Assembly: GCA_013368315.1 (NCBI GenBank)
Contig: JAACJM010000157.1
Location: forward strand, 62,001-126,000
Length of the DNA stretch: 64,000 nucleotides
Direction of reading: 5' to 3'
DNA from: Tetrapyrgos nigripes
Taxonomy: Eukaryota; Basidiomycota; Agaricomycetes; Agaricales; Campanellaceae
Shown: positions 30,275 through 51,228 of the stretch, one piece after another
Position numbering within the stretch: the first letter of the stretch is position 1
Layout: the number at the start of each line of letters is the position of its first letter
The notes under the pieces: generated by a model
Database searches by the model: none
What the model was told of the DNA's origin: nothing
Seen by the model: the letters and a program-made list of their open reading frames with translations, nothing else
Position numbers and translations under genes: made by a program

Positions 30275-31294
30275 ATGAAAGCGAGACTTTCAAGCTTATG
30301 GAGACCATTAGCGAAAATTAAAACCTTTAGTGATTACCAGAAAGTATTGGTGACATACACTAGTGTTAACAAGAACCTTGGTAGTCTGCAAGATGCTTGG
30401 ACTTTGGGCAGTGAGCTCAGGCTTGAGCCTTGTGACCACAGTGAACAGCAGGACATGAGTGGTCACACACCATGAATTTGTATCAGAGAATGATTCATTG
30501 ATGGAGGAAGAGGTGAAAATAGACAGGAAAGACTCTAAGCAGGAAGAGGAGTTGAAGGGATATTCAGTGCCCTCCTCCTCCTCCAACAGAGGGGAAACAC
30601 CATCAAGGGATTCTGCTTGGAGTTTGATCAAAGATGTCCTTGGATGGGTGAAGAAGGCTTTCAAGCAGTTGAAAGACACATGCGACAATAGCCCAAAAAT
30701 GCTAGACATCAGATCAGATTCAACATACAAAGACTCAAAGTCTCAGGACTCTGATCCCCTTGCCATGGCCTTGATCCCACTTGGATCCAATTTGAATAGC
30801 AACTTTAGCCTCACTGGAGGCAATGTTCATTTCTCTACAACAAATGACAGCTGTTCCGCCACCAATTCTCACAATGTTCACATCCACATCATGTCCAACT
30901 CGCACAATGTCAGTACCAAAGGAAATCCACTGTGTTCTCAATATCCTATACCACCAGTGCAGGGTGTAAGGTGGAATTGGCAAAGGAGAAAGTTCAATTA
31001 AGCCCCTGTTACAAGTTCTATTTATAGGACAAGTCTTATCGTGGGCTCAAATGGCTGCATTTTTCGTACCCCAGGAAAATATATCCTATTCTGTCAGCTT
31101 GGCAGACTCAGCACCAAGCTTCTCTGCAAATTCTCTGTCAACTTTTGTCAAGCAACAAACCAGGGACCAGTGACCAGTGCCCAGTCCATGACCCACATCT
31201 ACCTCTTCAGATTCTATTGCATTTTGTGCAATGGGATGAGTACTTGTACCTGCTGCTGTATACAGTGGCCTGCACCAACATATTTCAAGTGAGG
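30275..31294 (+). pseudogene. Paralog of the Zn2Cys6-like gene, 3' end lost
   Basis: An open frame 30459-31001 contains an acidic part (SLMEEEVKIDRKDSKQEEEL), DVLGWVKKAFKQLKD and then a Ser/Asn/His tract with STTND and TNSHNVHIHI, matching the tail of the protein at 1.8-2.9 kb. A second frame upstream (30275-30475, LSSLWRPLAKIKTFSDY) may be an earlier exon. 31056-31294 aligns with 43070-43116 plus 50123-50303, the third family member, but similarity ends at 31294, before the Trp-rich C-terminus. Nearly all changes against that copy turn CG into TG or CA. Function unknown; no zinc cluster is visible here. Confidence 0.55.
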
Positions 31295-43069: not shown

Positions 43070-43116
43070 CTCAAATGGCCGCATTTTTCGTATCCCGGGA
43101 AAATATATCCTATTCC
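43070..43116 (+). pseudogene. Left part of the third paralog, before the transposon
   Basis: GCTCAAATGGCCGCATTTTT and the following bases match 31048-31094 of the paralog. Interrupted at 43117 by the 7-kb element; the sequence resumes at 50123 after a duplicated CTATTCC. Confidence 0.7.
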
Positions 43117-43142
43117 TATGGAAACCCGGAAGGCCTCGCTCG
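43117..43142 (+). repeat. Left terminal inverted repeat
   Basis: Starts TATGGAAACCCGGAAGGC and is the exact inverse complement of 50097-50122. Confidence 0.9.
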
Positions 43143-43463
43143 CTCCGGAGAGCCTCGCAGACCATAAGCGATCATGCCGGCAATACGGCACCTCCGATAT
43201 GGAAATCAGACCCCAGACACTTCGGTGTATAGAGAGTTATGTAAGTATGTAAGCTGTTATTCAAAAGACTGGAGATATTGCGAGCATCGTGTATGGGTAT
43301 CTCACCTCGTTCTCAGGCTTCAAATCAGCTGCATTTTTTGAACTGTATATGGATGCGTTCAAAGTGCTCAAAGGACTGGAGACTTTGATAGATTTTACGA
43401 GATTTTACATGCTGGTACATAGACTGAGAGAAGATATGATTTGTAAATAGATTGTAGTTTGTT

Positions 43464-45667
43464 TTACTCTTCATCTGACTGTGCTTCGTCAGATGTGAAA
43501 TCAACAATGCCATCGACCAAATCACCATCTTCAATATCAGCTCCCAGACCACCTCTCACACCACCCATATAGCCACCTTCTGAATCATGATGTAAAGGTA
43601 AGAGATCATCGAGAATAGGCTCAGATGCATCTTCCGGAAGTGGAGGCCTAGGCGCCCAGGCATTGTCACCATAGCCTGAAAGACCCATTGTCTCAAATAT
43701 GGCAGGGTCCACTTCAAACATAGCCAATAAATCCTCATAAACATTCCACACATTGTCCCTTGTTACAGCGGGAGATCCAAGTTGCTCATAATACACAGAA
43801 GCCCAATGATTGAACTCTGATGGCACAAGATCAAAAACGGGATGATCAGGAGGAGCATAAAGTTTCTCAGCGTCGTGGATATAATCAGCGTCAGCATTAA
43901 TCACAATCTGTCAATAAATAGTGATATAATAAGTATACAAGCAAATGAAATTTAGAGTATATGCTGTTGCTTACTTTGAAGTTGAGTGAATTGTAGCGCT
44001 CAGGATGTTCGTCAATGTCATCTGGAGGCCCATGAGGGAGAATCTTGTGCTTCTGAGCACGTTTCAGTGAGTTGTTGACCCGGTGAACATAAGCATCAAT
44101 TTCGAGTTGTAGCCATGGAATGAAAACCCATTTGAATACATTGCTAGGATTAAGGATATGAGAGACAGATCAAGTGTGATCAGTAAAGGAAATGCTCACT
44201 ACTGGAGAGGATGGTGGGGGTCATATTGCACAGAGGCACTTGATAAAATGTTCTCAAAGCCTGGCATGAAATTGCGGCGTAAATTTGACCAGGTAATCTC
44301 GGGAGGAATATTGCTTTTCTCCCGCATGAAACGATGCTGTAAAGTACCGATCAATTGGGGGTCCAGGCACTGGCGGATGTATGAATGTCCCTTAGCCAAG
44401 TGAAAGTTCTCGGTGCCTGGGTCGCTTTGAGTTACAAGAGATGTGTCTGCAAAATATTCCATCAGAAAGAGAGAAGATATTTATTTGTTAGTGCACCTCA
44501 CATCCATCCTTCTTGATAGTATCAAGGTAATACCTAAAGATCAGCCGTGGATTGGAGTTGTTATGCCAGACCTTCATCCACTTTATTTTGCCAGAGAAAG
44601 GATCAATTCCTGCATTGCAGAATAAATTCATAAGCATACAATAATTAGAAACAAGTTGATACCTGTATGCAAAGCTAGACCATATTTCTTGAGCTTATCA
44701 TGCTGGTCAACGCAAAGCATGTCATTGACGCCAGCTGCCCAAAATCTCCGACGCTTGAGTCTTCTTCTTCGACGTGCCCTCACCAAATCTGGCTCATAGC
44801 GACGGAAGTATTCCTCGATAACTGATCTGTGTGTCATACGTTGTTAATCTTGATTGATAGTGACATAGATCAGAAAACTTGCCTCTTCACTTCCTTCTTC
44901 AGATCATGGTGGAAAATCCTCTTGATACCTCTTGCGCCGGCCACAGGATAGTATTTACGTAGTGATATCATGTCTTCTATAATATCTTCGACTTGTAAAT
45001 CTGAAAGCACTGGTTAGTAGATATCAAATTGTGAATGTAAAGGCATGCAGACTAGAAGAGCGTGATCGGTATAGCCCCAAGCTTGTACGTATTTGGCGGA
45101 GTTTCTTAATCCTGGTAGACTCATATCAGCTTTTCGTACGAGGATTTTACAAGCTTTGAATAATGACTGACGCAATTCCATATTGTTCTGTATCAAAAAG
45201 TTTGTCTTCATAAAGATATGCCAAAATCTTCACGTCACTGAAACCTCGATCCCAGTACTTTCGAATGCTGGGTTCGATGAGTTCAATAGGGGCTGCATGT
45301 AATCAATCAGTCAATGAAATGTCTAGATGTGTACACGTACGAGTAGGTTTGTTTCTTCCCATTCAAGCTGAGCAAGGAATAAAAAGGACAAGATGAGGAC
45401 CAGCAATGGCTCGATGAATAACTTCGAAGTCAAGGATGGAGTACTTATAGTCTCCAGTCTAGTAGACAATGCTGCGGGCAGCGTGCAGCATTTGATATGC
45501 ATTTCTGTTGCCCGTGTGGCGGTTGAGGCCTCCATTTGAACGGTCGAACTTGCGTTGTATTTGTCACTCGAAATTTCCAACGGATTTTTCAGCGGTGAAG
45601 ATCTTAAAAACTTGCGTCCGTATAATGCCTGTATAACGGTTTTTGTGTTGCTTGCAGGGGACCACAT
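43464..45667 (-). CDS. DDE integrase-like protein of the 7-kb element
   Basis: Minus strand, about six exons. Readable in order: VEDIIEDMISLRKYYPVAGA and GIKRIFHHDLKKEVKR; SVIEEYFRRYEPDLVRARRR; RRFWAAGVNDMLCVDQHDK; FSGKIKWMKVWHNNSNPRL and IFRYYLDTIKKDG; LVTQSDPGTENFHLAKGHSY; IGTLQHRFMREKSNIPPEIT; VFKWVFIPWLQLEIDAYVHR; LYAPPDHPVFDLVPSEFNHW; and an acidic tail ending SDEAQSDEE at 43464. Candidate catalytic residues are Asp in VDQHD, Asp in QSDPG and Glu in PPEITW. The family is the basidiomycete integrase-core-domain proteins related to retroviral integrases. It would bind the inverted repeats, cut and join. The N-terminal exons (45.0-45.7 kb, with NAYQMLHAARSIV and LDFEVIHRAIAGPH in one frame) are uncertain and contain stops. 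The catalytic part looks intact. Confidence 0.82.
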
Positions 45668-46023
45668 ATCAGAATCAACATGAGGCTCCTCGGTTGTCTT
45701 CGGAGGACCACATGCCAGATGTGAACTTACCCGTCATATAGGTTCGAGTCTAATAGTGGATTTGTGGCGCGCTGAGTCTGAAAATTGTTGTTGTTGTACT
45801 TGCATCCGATCCGAGTCTGATTTGTGGATTTGTGGCGTGCTGAGTCTGGAATTTTCAGCGGTTGAACTTGTGTCTCGTCAAAAACTTGCGTCCGTATAAC
45901 ATCTCATGGGCTGCTTGTGGTCAAACTTGTGTCCGATTGAGTCTGATCTGAGTTCAGAATTTCCAGGATTTTTTTGCAGCGGTCAAACTTTGAAAAACTT
46001 GCGTCCGTATAATGCCCGTATAG
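45590..46023. repeat. Three-copy motif between the divergent genes
   Basis: AAAACTTGCGTCCGTATAA occurs with its core at 45611, 45885 and 45998, all in one orientation. Each is preceded by TTT(T)CAGCGGT or TTTGCAGCGGT and followed by GCC(T/C)GTATA in two of the three. A second motif, GATTTGTGGCG(C/T)GCTGAGTCTG, occurs twice between them. They could be operator or enhancer repeats of a shared bidirectional promoter, or internal binding sites for the element's own enzyme. Confidence 0.7.
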
Positions 46024-46230
46024 CATTTCATCGGTTACTTGCAAAGGACCATATGCCATGAGGCTCAACACAAGATTTCTACCGCACACGATTGACTGGT
46101 GGCAAAAAATCAAGTGAATCACTGTCAGATTAAGAAAAGACTATGGCTCGTATAAATACCTGAAGCTTATTTCTGGAATCCATCATCCTTACTAGCAATC
46201 CTCGATTGAACCTGCCTGCCTCTGATCTCA

Positions 46231-49027
46231 ATGACCTCCCTCCCTCCGGCCCAAGAAGTCAATGCTTTTACGAGCGATGATCGTGCTCCAGAATCATTCA
46301 ACTGTGAGCGGTGTGGAGTGTTTGTGAAGAAGGGTAATGAATGGGGTTACTTCAAGAATCCTGCTGGCCGTGATAAACGGACCTGCAAGGACTGTAAGAG
46401 GTACTATAGCAAGGGTGTAGCCCAGCGTCAAGGTGCATTGTTTTTATTTATCCGATACATTTTCATTTATCCAATCATTTTTTATTTCTATTTAGATACC
46501 TTAAGTCGAAGTCGTTCCACCAGCTCTTCCACTCATTCAGGAATGATTGAACCACTTCCAAATCCTGACATGATAGCATCGAGGGTAAATGCAGCTCAAC
46601 GTGCCAGTGAGGATTTCTTATTTTTTATTACAACGAACGGCTCACCTAACTTCGATTAATAGATGCTAGCCGGGAAATGAGCCATGTCACTCCTATGAGC
46701 AATTCAGGTAGAATCAATCCATTTTTACTTTTGTGATTATTTCTCATTAATTTTTGAAGGTCCTTATGTCAGTCTGCCCAACCTGAGTCGCAGTTCTGCA
46801 GTATTGAGTGGACCGCATGGATATGTCTCGAGGCCAAGAGCAACTGGTTATTCTCCCGCTCACCAACATCACTCTGCACAAACCGATCTGTGGCGATCCA
46901 AAGCTTATGCACCTAGTGGCGAGACTGTGGCGGTGAACATCACTGTCGGTCATGCTACTGAAGGTAAAACAGGTCATGAACTGTTGAATGTTGGTATTTC
47001 TGCATTCTTAAACTTGTTATGCTGCTCACCACCATCCACAGGGATTTCAGATTCCATTCGAGACCTTGATGTGAATCTTACTGTGCCTGAAGTCCGCCAC
47101 GCAGTTCTGGACCTCATGAAGCCCAAAATCAATCAGTTCTCAGCTGAAATCATGGATTCTGTTTCAAATTCGATGAATTCAATTTAAGGGAAATCTCCAA
47201 GTCACTGAATGTTGACATGGACGGACCAACATTAGATCGCCGTACACCATACTTTCGACCTCAGTGCATGAAAGCTGATAAGAAAACCAATCAACTGAAA
47301 TTTCACCGGCCATCAACACCATTTCGTCTTCTCTTGCTCATCTCCGCAAAAGAATGGGATCGTTACGAGTCTTTATTGGAGGCGCAGGCACATGCAAACG
47401 TGAGGGATTTTATTTGGTATTACTATTCCGTATTTCTGACTGACTTATATTGTTTTCTAGGACTTACCAATTATCCGTACCACTTCCACGAGCTCTTCTC
47501 ATTCATCATGGCAAAAGGTTTACAAAGTGTGCGTACTCAATGTAAGTTATGGTTATGAATGTTCTATACTTACACATCTGTTTGTAGATTCCCTCAACAG
47601 CGACTTCGTCAGCTTTAAATACAGCTAGCCCCAAGACTTCCGCTGCTATCTCTTCAGTATCAATGGACTGACTTGATTGGGATGACAGTGATACTGCACG
47701 TACCTCTGCCAAACGACCTCGCAGCGTATGTACACTTCTACTTCCCATATCAATATTCTCTGAAGCGCCCATATACTTTTAGACTTCCAGTGTGACACCA
47801 ACGACTCCTCCACGAGCCAAAAGAGCTCCAGCACCATTCCTTTCACCAACGGAAAATCGGATCACTAGTGCTTTGATAGCAGGCGGATTGAATTCTGACC
47901 AACACTCAGACATTAGCTCACTCACCACCATGCAGGGCCTCGTTGCTCCCATACCAACGGTCTCCTTTCTTGACATCATCAACCTCGACAATGTTCATAC
48001 CAGGTTCATATTTGACAATGCTGTGCTTTCCTCCGTCGCACATTTGCAGGCTGATTTGCGCTTTGAGTCAGAACTTGGCGTTGGGGCTTTCAAAACTTGT
48101 CACCCGGCCAAGCTGATCTGTTCAGAACAAGTAATGACTGCCAACTCTGTTGTGATGAAGGAACTTTATAAAAAACAAGGGCCTTAGAGAGAACAGCAAA
48201 GTGTACGCATTATTTTTTCTATACTATAAGACAAAACTAATTCTCTTAACACTTCGTCAGAGTCAATCGAGGCAGATATAGCGGAGTGGTTGAATTTGAC
48301 GGAATCATGATTGAAGCCAACGTTCATTATTATGCCGTTGCCTTAATGGAGTTTGCATATGCATATATTGAGCGACAAAAGCTTGAGAAAGGTATCTATC
48401 CTTTTACTCATTGTTTAACTTACTGATCATTTGATGCTAACAGGTCTCCCTGACCTCCCTATTCCAAATTTGAGATATGTTGAGGCTGCAGTGTTCATGG
48501 TGCAGAACAATGAGATCAGACATTCAAGATCAAGTACTGCTGGGCCAAAGCGTACATATTTACTGGAGGAACGGATCGCTCTGCCACCAGGCCAGGACTT
48601 TATCAAATACATCCATAACTCGAGCCCCTTACCAGCCATTCCTCCCGAGCATCCTGAATACAACACTGCATTATTCCTAGCAGCAGTGCAACATCTTCAG
48701 TATGAGAAAACATATCAGAGCGCATATGTCTCTGATTTCCAAGGTTATGGTGGACTGCTTTCTGACCCGCAAATAATGACCTCTCCGTTAGTTTTCCTTA
48801 TCCTTGGTATGTGGTGGTATACTAAGAATATTTCCAGTAAACTCTTACAGGTGATTTTCAGAGAAGGAGCTGAAGCTGCTGCTCTAGACCCAAAAACCTC
48901 ACTTTTCGGGGATGGAAATGTTCAGAGCGGGTTTGAAAAGTTTCCCCTAAATCATCAGTGTGAGGGTAATCCTTTTTGCGCATGGATGGAATTGAAGCCA
49001 CTTCAGAATGAGCTTCAGGATGAGTGA
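46231..49027 (+). CDS. Alpha-type protein kinase with Zn-binding N-terminus
   Basis: Starts MTSLPPAQEVNAFTSDD. A Zn-ribbon-like module follows (NCERCG...RTCKDCKRYYSKG). A Ser/Pro/Thr-rich middle leads to the kinase domain: ELGVGAFKTCHPAKL, the nucleotide-binding Lys in SVVMKELY, GVVEFDGIMIEANVHYYAVA and LMEFAYAYIE, RTYLLEERI, DFIKYIHNSS, then AYVSDFQGYGGLLSDPQIMT (catalytic and metal Asp), SLFGDGNVQSGFEKF and the Zn site NHQCEGNPFCAWMEL. These are hallmarks of alpha kinases, which phosphorylate Ser/Thr within helices. Introns carry good GT-AG ends, but I could not join every exon: there is a frame problem near 47190 and an in-frame TAG near 48185, so it may be slightly damaged. The kinase is unlike any transposition enzyme I know; its role for the element or host is open. 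Confidence 0.82.
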
Positions 49028-49298
49028 GTGCAGACTCGGTAGATGTTGCTAGCCTATAGCCACACTCTATTTCCTGTACATATCTTCAATTTCTATATAC
49101 ACATTTCGAATTCTATGGCCGTACGAGTGTACACTTGCCAGAAGGATTATTTTACTTTGAAAGAAATGTGCAGATGGCATCATTCCTGGTATCACAAAGA
49201 GCAAAGAAAGATACAACAAGCTTGTATCGAGGAGGTAGTTGCACATTTCTCGCTTCATCTGGTTGCTTATACTATGACAAAAGATCAGTCAATAGACT

Positions 49299-49730
49299 GA
49301 TGGTACCTCTGATTCTCGTTACTGTACCTTCGTTTTCCATCAGCAACTCTTAATTTTTTTCTATTTAACTACCATCTTATACTAATTAAACAAAGATACC
49401 TACTACAGAGCTTAGTAGTAGAACCATCTGTTGCTAGAGCTGGGTGAAAGCCACCCTACGACGCCAGAAGAAGCGTGGGACATCCGCCCTTCCAAATTGG
49501 TACTAGTCATTAGTCATCCAAGGATTGACCGACGATGCCTCTGATTTTCATTACTGTACCTTCGTTCTTCATTAGCAACTCTTTATTTTCTGTATTTAGC
49601 TACCCTATGATATTAATCAATGAAAGGTACCTACTACAGAGCTTAGTAGTAGATCTATCTGTTCAAAACGACGCCACCGGAAGAAGCGCCCTTCTAAATT
49701 GGGGAGTCGGTTAGTCATCCAGCGATTGAA
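49299..49730. repeat. Tandem duplication downstream of the kinase
   Basis: Two units of about 200-230 bp (49299-49530 and 49532-49730). Both contain CTCTGATT-TC-TTACTGTACCTTC, TACCTACTACAGAGCTTAGT and the end TTAGTCATCCA. They lie between the kinase stop and the right end of the element. The inner CTACTACAGAGCTTAGTAGTAG is a near-palindrome of interest as a protein site; only part is quoted here: ACTACAGAGCTTAGTAGT. Confidence 0.75.
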
Positions 49731-50096
49731 TCCCTATTGTTTCTTGGCCATAGCTTTTTCTATGACCTCCCCATTATGGAAAAAATGAGGAGGACTCCTA
49801 GAATCGCTACATGTATATCGACACCCTTATATTGTGAGAAAAGTGTAATGAATACCCGGAGACAGCGAACGCAGTCATGGATAGTGGCTTGACTTATTGT
49901 GTGTCGATTCCTAAGGCAGTGAGTCATGTATTTATTGCAGAGAATGTACTGCCTCGGACTGAAGCAATGTCGCTCTCACAAAAACCTCTTGGATTTCGAT
50001 ACTTAATAAATACAAATTAATACACAAATCAGGGACAGAGAGTGCTCGAGAGTGCTCGGGGTCCGAAACCTCGCCAATCAAAAATGAATCGCTTAA

Positions 50097-50122
50097 CGAG
50101 CGAGGCCTTCCGGGTTTCCATA
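50097..50122 (-). repeat. Right terminal inverted repeat
   Basis: Ends GGCCTTCCGGGTTTCCATA, the exact inverse of the left end. Confidence 0.9.
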
Positions 50123-50443
50123 CTATTCCGTCAGCTCGGCAGAGTCGGCACCAAACTTCTCCGCAAATTCTCCGTCAACTTTCGTCGAGCAACGAACCAG
50201 TGACCAGTTCATGACCCACACCTACCCTCTTCAGAGTCTATTGCATTTTGTGCAATGGGATGAGGACTCGTACCTGCCGCTGTATACAGTGGCCCCACCG
50301 ACATATTACCAACGTTGCGTTCTTCGCCGGTTCCATGCGTATACATGCAATGGTTTTGGGAAGCCATTAACTCATGCTGGTTACAATTACCTGTCGTGCA
50401 CTGGTTTCATGGACCTACAGCTCCATTCCCCTATCATTCGTAA
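50123..50443 (+). pseudogene. Right part of the third paralog, C-terminal exon
   Basis: After the transposon the paralog sequence resumes (CTATTCCGTCAGCTCGG). The last exon reads VPAAVYSGPTDILPTLRSSP, then MQWFWEAINSCWLQLPVVHW and ends TAPFPYHS, stop at 50441-50443. The first family member ends FMQWVWDAFSQQWVQSWSAP, IVQWFNNTTVPFPYHS, so the two share the Trp-rich terminus. Its upstream exons are not found left of 43070 in this window. The transposon lies in a part that is probably intronic, so splicing in principle could remove it, but the missing 5' exons argue for a relic. CpG sites are intact here, unlike the copy at 31 kb. Confidence 0.7.
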
Positions 50444-51228
50444 TCTCGATTGAAATCAGGACCAAGTTCATTTTCATTTTCATTTCTAAACATGTTCGCG
50501 ATATCGCATTCTTTATTCAAAAGTTCGTTTTCATATTATTCCGCGTTGGCTCATGCTATTCACTCAAAACCTCATAAATGTAGATATTTTTTCATACGAG
50601 TGACGATTGGTTGTCTACCTCTTACATATACTTAGCACCATGTTATATACTTCCGTTGTGTAGTAGCTCGGTAGCATACTTTTAACACCATTATTGTCGT
50701 CGTTTCCTCAACGCAGAATATTCCAGCATCCTAATCTAGAGTGAGTGAGATAATACGCCGCTACCTAGTACTAGCTACTGAAGGCTTTACATCTGTATAT
50801 AGACGTGCGAAGCAACTATCTACAGTCTAAAATATACGGGCAGAACTCTCTACCACCGAGATAAGCGGCAAATAAGCCTCTTTCCATGACTATACAGAAG
50901 ACCGTGAATAGGGGTTTTTGGCTCCCCGTGACCACTTTTTTTGCAGAATTTCGCCTTTGATGCGTTGTATGATGTCGCTGTATTTCCGAGTCTCTTCTCC
51001 CCCCACTCCACCGACGACTACATCGAGTACTGCGAATACGACGACAACGACAGGTACCACTCAACCCGACTCCCGACTGCGCCTATATCCTCCCCACCCA
51101 AATCCTCAGCCGCGGCGCCTCCTCCCATCCCTCAATCAAACCTAAACACCGACTCCCTAGACGACCCATCAAGAAGGCTACCGCCCGAGTTGACGGTCAA
51201 GTTGGAACACAGTGAACAAAATTAAGTA
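50444..51228. other. Intergenic with a doubtful open frame
   Basis: 50918-51225 (+) holds two overlapping open frames, Pro/Ser-rich (SSPPKSSAAAPPPIPQS) or Thr-rich. A stretch AGGGGTTTTTGGCTCC...GTATGATGTCGC at about 50910-50980 is similar to one at 51637-51690 beyond the MITE, so a local duplication precedes it. No recognised gene. Confidence 0.4.

What the first reader, a model, noticed from the sequence alone, without database searches (positions are those of the whole stretch)
43117..50122. A DNA transposon that pairs a DDE integrase with an alpha-type protein kinase
Seen directly: 26-bp perfect inverted repeats, a 7-bp target duplication, a divergent gene pair filling the interior, and no LTR or reverse transcriptase. 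By family knowledge, the minus-strand product is the basidiomycete integrase-core-domain type with Asp, Asp, Glu candidates, and the plus-strand product has the SDFQG, SDPQIMT and C-terminal His/Cys zinc site of alpha kinases. Both families are expanded in mushroom genomes. Inference: they may travel together, with the kinase as a standing component rather than chance cargo, for example a regulator of transposition or a protein that benefits or manipulates the host. I know of no named superfamily with this pairing and a 7-bp duplication.
Basis: partly seen in the sequence, partly recalled or inferred. Interest (0 to 1): 0.92.

Follow-up and report, generated by a model that had tools for sequence, protein, structure and literature searches.

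The report
Mushroom jumping gene with kinase partner
This is a recently active cut-and-paste transposon of the IS3EU type in a mushroom genome that carries its own protein kinase beside its transposase; the pairing had already been mentioned in print, but here it occurs without the demethylating enzyme it was reported with, and the kinase appears to be kept by selection.

Summary
The element is real: window 43117-50122 has 26-bp perfect inverted repeats, a divergent transposase/alpha-kinase pair, and five complete sibling copies in the genome, very probably Tetrapyrgos nigripes. The 7-bp duplication is peculiar to this copy: 10 of 14 elements read at both ends have perfect 6-bp duplications. 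Ends (TATGG..CCATA), 6-bp duplications and integrase fold fit a named superfamily, IS3EU, and Kojima 2025 (PMC12730594) states that its TET-bearing fungal families carry transposase and alpha-kinase in opposite orientation. So 'no named superfamily with this pairing' is wrong. Added here: pairing without TET; 22 of 32 related transposase loci have kinase-family sequence within 12 kb (about 0.4 expected), all in opposite orientation; consecutive gene numbers in two other genera; purifying selection on both genes (dN/dS about 0.08 and 0.12, dS saturated). Against an obligatory kinase: 9 of the 22 match only the kinase tail, and the one of these read through between its genes, a complete element with a 6-bp duplication, lacks the catalytic domain; 9 loci show no kinase. 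The kinase is a recurrent, selected, not strictly required partner; its substrate is unknown. This window's kinase copy is frameshifted.

The parts
43117..43142 (+). left terminal inverted repeat, starts TATGG
   Evidence: same ends in the 6 complete copies
50097..50122 (-). right terminal inverted repeat, ends CCATA
43110..43116 (.). left target-site duplication CTATTCC (7 bp in this copy; 6 bp is the rule in the family)
50123..50129 (.). right target-site duplication CTATTCC
43464..45362 (-). DDE (IS3EU-type) transposase gene, about 484 codons, predicted start MGRNKPT at 45362; predicted exons (edges approximate) 45172-45292, 45053-45111, 44891-45000, 44663-44813, 44502-44609, 44200-44446, 43975-44143, 43464-43907 plus a short first exon
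   Evidence: exon model by own script, Pfam rva_4, homologues; splice sites not verified by RNA
46231..49027 (+). alpha-kinase gene: N-terminal C-x2-C..C-x2-C motif, VNAAQ motif, C-terminal alpha-kinase domain; frameshifted in this copy, open in the exon models of the five sibling copies
47040..48170 (+). stretch holding the seven 1-base indels private to the window copy
48731..49008 (+). SDFQG / SDPQIMT catalytic motifs and H-x-C..C tail of the kinase (approximate span)
49306..49670 (+). subterminal non-coding stretch with two near-copies, 81-82% alike to places on C142, C5, C300 and C3 that hold relatives
31042..31284 (+). diverged repeat paralogue of the insertion site without the element (empty-site proxy)

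Best explanation
A cut-and-paste DNA transposon family of the IS3EU superfamily, in a genome that is very probably Tetrapyrgos nigripes. The minus-strand gene encodes a DDE transposase with an integrase-like core that would act on the TATGG..CCATA ends and join them to target DNA with a 6-bp stagger. The plus-strand gene encodes an alpha-kinase that travels with it, divergently transcribed, and has been kept by purifying selection. SHOWN by sequence: ends, duplications, several near-identical copies, both protein families, pairing in several diverged lineages, purifying selection, CpG-directed C-to-T decay of the copies. INFERRED: the kinase is a helper that acts on a host or transposon protein to favour expression or transposition; my first guess is relief of chromatin or methylation silencing, because the copies decay as CpG-methylated DNA does and because rust and truffle relatives carry a TET dioxygenase between the same two genes. 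A complete element without the catalytic domain exists, so the kinase, if needed, can act in trans or is only a facilitator.
Against: No Repbase sequence could be compared, so IS3EU membership rests on ends, duplication length, fold and gene content. This copy has a 7-bp duplication, C51 and C243 show none, C142 one with a mismatch. Of 32 transposase loci 9 show no kinase match within 12 kb and 9 match only its tail; the complete element C86:322448-330163 has a 6-bp duplication yet lacks the catalytic domain; 4 of 14 elements read at both ends match neither gene. 32 of 54 alpha-kinase loci in the genome are not near such a transposase. dS is saturated (1.8-2.2), so dN/dS is only approximate. 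Foldseek alone gave the transposase no match at E <= 0.001. No expression, phosphorylation or transposition data; the anti-silencing role has no direct evidence.
Confidence: 0.85

Rival explanations
1. Same transposon, but the kinase acts on the transposition machinery itself: it phosphorylates the transposase or a repair factor and so times or limits transposition, rather than countering silencing.
For: Linkage in opposite orientation in 22 of 32 loci and selection on both genes fit a regulator of the partner protein equally well; the transposase has an Arg-rich stretch before the core and an acidic, Ser-bearing C-terminus (read from the alignment).
Against: No substrate data. Copies of the C86/C89 type, one of them shown to lack the catalytic domain, have spread, which a cis-acting regulator would not obviously allow.
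Confidence: 0.3
2. The kinase is passive cargo: a host alpha-kinase gene captured by chance and carried along.
For: Alpha-kinases are numerous in this genome (54 loci), so capture is easy; at least one lineage has lost the catalytic domain and several elements with these ends carry neither gene.
Against: Pairing in lineages whose transposases and kinases are both strongly diverged, and in other genera, low dN/dS across lineages whose kinase exons are about 60-75% identical, and the same pairing reported in rusts and truffle (PMC12730594).
Confidence: 0.1
3. A new superfamily defined by a 7-bp duplication and this gene pair.
For: The window copy does show CTATTCC on both sides.
Against: 6-bp duplications in 10 of 14 elements with both ends read; IS3EU already has these termini, this duplication length and this gene pair.
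Confidence: 0.03

Closest known systems
TET-bearing IS3EU families of rusts and of Tuber (Kojima 2025, PMC12730594; abstract, passages, sections 25 and 34 seen)
   Same: 6-bp duplications, TAYGG..CCRTA ends (stated for the rust families), transposase and alpha-kinase genes in opposite orientation
   Different: those families carry a TET/JBP gene between the two; here none is seen, and TET-family hits lie on none of the contigs of the 32 loci; host is an Agaricales mushroom
IS3EU/GingerRoot superfamily in general (PMC10045372, passages seen)
   Same: TA..TA ends, usually 6-bp duplications, DDE transposase, no HHCC motif before the core
   Different: the passages seen do not mention a kinase
Styx of Zymoseptoria (PMC10853768, passages seen)
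   Same: IS3EU-related transposase, 6-bp duplications, recent activity, extra genes
   Different: passages seen list a transposase, GATA- and CCHC-motif proteins and a DUF3577 protein, no alpha-kinase
Alpha-kinases ChaK/TRPM7, eEF2K, MHCK A
   Same: fold, D-x-Q-G and D-P-Q motifs, His/Cys tail

Membership tests
IS3EU superfamily | TA..TA termini, in rust families TAYGG..CCRTA | tested here: met
   TATGG..CCATA in all 6 complete copies and in 8 related elements read at both ends
IS3EU superfamily | usually 6-bp target-site duplications | tested here: met
   perfect in 10 of 14 elements with both ends read; the window copy shows 7, C142 one mismatch, C51 and C243 none
IS3EU superfamily | DDE transposase with integrase-like (IS3-like) core | tested here: met
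IS3EU superfamily | no HHCC motif upstream of the core | tested here: met
   the window transposase row has no Cys before the core (first Cys next to the first D); read by eye
IS3EU superfamily | groups with Repbase IS3EU transposases in a tree | not testable with these tools
   Repbase is not held
TET-bearing IS3EU subgroup | TET/JBP gene between transposase and kinase | tested here: not met
   PF12851 and PF20515 hits (3 and 3) lie on contigs C284, C404, C155, C71, C13, C352 only (exon-wise search, so weak exons could be missed; that PF20515 is a TET-like family is recalled); the gap between the genes in the window is about 0.9 kb
Alpha-kinase family | alpha-kinase domain | tested here: met
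Alpha-kinase family | catalytic activity | not testable with these tools
   catalytic motifs present in the window and in C20 and conserved in relatives; no assay
Alpha-kinase family | C-terminal zinc site (H, H-x-C-x3-C; spacing as in the 1ia9 row) | tested here: inconclusive
   H652 invariant and tail aligned to 1ia9, but this family has two extra residues in the tail

The most novel reading that the evidence does not exclude
The alpha-kinase, not TET, is the ancestral second gene of fungal IS3EU transposons: a dedicated, selected enzyme that modifies a host silencing or chromatin protein so that methylated copies can be expressed and move, with TET added later in some lineages as a second counter-silencing tool.
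Probability: 0.35. Interest if true: 0.7.

Novelty: new member of a known kind. Interest (0 to 1): 0.42.

Why it matters
It turns a single sentence in the literature into a testable proposal: a eukaryotic DNA transposon superfamily keeps its own protein kinase. This family offers near-identical copies with both genes open, an apparent empty allele, kinase-deleted relatives and a CpG-decay signature, so the kinase's role can be tested in a mushroom or in yeast. It may also explain part of the alpha-kinase expansion in some fungi: 22 of the 54 kinase-family loci counted here (9 of them tail matches only) sit beside such a transposase, and a published comparison calls the family highly expanded in the rusts and absent from the Microbotryomycetes (PMC4469406, one passage).

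Tried and rejected

Literature: searches (0 papers) and 63. Besides the three papers cited for IS3EU, I saw single passages of PMC5295586 (alpha-kinase listed as enriched in wheat-rust genomes), PMC4469406, PMC8955403 (IS3EU counted in Ganoderma) and PMC12411881 (IS3EU counted in Phlebopus); none of these passages links the kinase to a transposon. All other papers were seen as listings only. I cannot say that TET-free IS3EU with alpha-kinase is absent from Repbase or from journals not held.

Counting choices: the 32 transposase loci are my hand grouping of the 150 matches (91 of 136 candidates scored, so a lower bound); coordinates were retyped into. In one search, aligned codons with a stop in the relative (1-5 per pair) were dropped before the count; C3, C142 and C65 were the only relatives compared. 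In one search columns without a 4-of-6 majority were dropped. Of the 9 loci with only a tail match, C86 was read through between the genes, C205 only in part (140600-147600; 137411-140600 not read); the other seven rest. Of the loci with catalytic matches, C300, C197, C139 and C151 were not read and their ends are unknown; C65 was read without its ends. In one search I compared a typed subset of the transposase list (15 of the 120 rows shown, of 215 found) with all 15 kinase rows. In the 40-sequence alignment D148 is only nearly invariant.

Full report
Observation. The window lies in an unnamed 98.46-Mb assembly in 587 contigs. Kinase proteins recorded for Tetrapyrgos nigripes (P0121, P0122, P0136) sit on contigs of 815878, 211523 and 200499 bases, the lengths of C20, C142 and the window's C154, and P0121 matches the C20 copy, so the host is very probably that mushroom (Agaricales, Campanellaceae). 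The element 43117-50122 (7006 bp) has 26-bp perfect inverted repeats, flanked by CTATTCC. Searches with the two ends found six complete copies, the window's included, of 7006-7010 bp and 0.11-0.47% apart, and one on C401 whose right part is not reached before the contig ends, plus diverged ends elsewhere.

Duplication length. Four of the five other complete copies have perfect 6-bp duplications (CGCAAC, CTTAAA, CTTGGG, GTAACA). The fifth, C243, has a left flank equal to C279, where the element is absent, but a right flank equal to the window's locus: an assembly chimera or recombination between copies, with C279 looking like the empty allele. Related elements have GGTTAC, CATTGT, TTATTG, CACATA, CTATCT (C3) and GACTAC (C86); C142 has GGCATT/GGCATG, the C51 element none. 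In all 14 read at both ends: 10 perfect 6-bp, 1 of 7 bp (the window), 1 with a mismatch, 2 without. The window's 7 bp is the exception.

Is the kinase a standing component? The transposase protein finds 32 loci in the genome (my grouping); the kinase C-terminus and Pfam give 54 alpha-kinase loci. 22 of 32 transposase loci have a kinase-family match within 12 kb, about 0.42 expected for random placement; all 22 are in opposite orientation, 20 divergent and 2 convergent (C139, C151). The count includes six near-identical copies. Thirteen of the 22 match the catalytic part (the six copies, C3, C142, C300, C65, C197, C139, C151); nine match only the tail (C63, C86, C97, C89, C205, C41, C64 and two on C6). 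In C86 the whole stretch between the genes was read: a weak N-terminal match (33%, 7e-5), the VNAAQ motif and the tail, but no catalytic match to any of seven kinase proteins. C205, read in part, carries the tail and LTR-retrotransposon-like reading frames. C86 is a complete element, C86:322448-330163, with TATGGAAAGCAGG.. ends and a GACTAC duplication; C86 and C89 are 99.1-99.8% identical over the compared parts but have different left flanks. So a kinase-deleted derivative has multiplied. Nine loci show no kinase match and one (C401) is cut off. Of the 8 related elements read at both ends, C3 and C142 carry both genes, C86 the transposase with the kinase remnant, C51:301408-304074 kinase but no transposase match, and C109, C150, C18 and C53 neither.

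Other genera. P0005/P0126 of Paramarasmius palmivorus (VNI00_008426, _008427) and P0111/P0131 of Marasmius crinis-equi (V5O48_013733, _013732) have consecutive gene numbers on contigs of the same length. This is 2 pairs among 15 kinase relatives; most others could not be judged.

Selection and decay. C20 against C3, C142 and C65: transposase dN/dS 0.085, 0.079, 0.073 (444, 425, 390 codons); kinase 0.128, 0.108, 0.117 (633, 626, 587 codons); dS 1.8-2.2 is saturated, raw pN/pS is about 0.2 and 0.3. Both genes were therefore kept by selection over the divergence of these lineages. Among the six copies 47 of 58 substitutions from the majority are C-to-T type, 37 of the 47 at CpG, although CpG makes up 228 of 1532 C in the element: the pattern of methylated CpG decay, not of CpA-directed RIP (that RIP favours CpA is recalled). 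The seven indels private to the window copy all lie in the kinase gene.

Comparison with what is known, set out after the above. Kojima 2025 (PMC12730594; abstract, passages, sections 25 and 34 seen) describes IS3EU families of rusts with 6-bp duplications and TAYGG..CCRTA ends and says that all TET-bearing IS3EU families have TET between transposase and alpha-kinase genes in opposite orientation. PMC10045372 (passages) gives IS3EU's TA..TA ends, usual 6-bp duplications and lack of HHCC. The element meets each of these that could be tested; comparison with Repbase could not be made. TET families (3 + 3 hits) lie on no contig that holds one of the 32 loci. So the superfamily and the pairing are known; the TET-free pairing here, its recurrence, selection and partial loss are what this work adds. 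Styx (PMC10853768, passages) is an IS3EU relative without an alpha-kinase in the passages seen. Rust genomes are reported as enriched in alpha-kinases (PMC5295586, PMC4469406, one passage each), which such transposons might explain; this is inference.

Mechanism. Transposition by the DDE enzyme with a 6-bp stagger is well supported by anatomy. The kinase's role is inferred. The anti-silencing reading rests on the CpG decay here, on TET in sister families, and on recalled knowledge, from no call, that TRPM7 kinase fragments can phosphorylate histone H3. A regulator of the transposase is nearly as likely. The spread of a kinase-deleted relative says that the kinase is not needed in cis.

Noticed in passing
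window 43117-50122 and its five complete sibling copies: Substitutions among copies are 47 of 58 C-to-T type and 37 of these 47 at CpG, a sign of CpG methylation of the transposon.
   Followed up: partly
L032 (C243), L059 (C279), window 50123-50700: C243 joins the left flank of one locus to the right flank of the window's locus, and C279 carries the same left flank without the element: assembly chimera or recombination, and an apparent empty allele.
   Followed up: partly
L039+L049 (C142:59913-71173): The 11.26-kb relative holds extra reading frames between transposase and kinase that look by eye like another, nested DDE-type element.
   Followed up: no
L052 (C205:140600-147600): LTR-retrotransposon-like gag-pol reading frames (by eye) lie inside a relative beside the kinase tail; similar 9.6-9.8 kb gaps on C6 and C41 suggest the same nested arrangement in three loci.
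   Followed up: partly
L043 (C51:301408-304074): A 2667-bp element with these ends carries kinase sequence but no transposase match and has no duplication.
   Followed up: partly
window 49306-49670: A subterminal non-coding stretch in two near-copies is more conserved between relatives (about 82%) than the coding DNA (about 70%) and has 43 matches in the genome.
   Followed up: partly
L048 (C53, 176 bp), L036 (C150, 1788 bp), L035 (C109, 3065 bp), L045 (C18, 7506 bp): Derivatives with the same ends and perfect 6-bp duplications but no match to either gene; the 176-bp one resembles a MITE.
   Followed up: no
G000 C51:438084, C27:451905, C143:13020, C179:30731: Alpha-kinases 53-60% alike to this one in their best stretch, without a detected transposase within 12 kb.
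   Followed up: no
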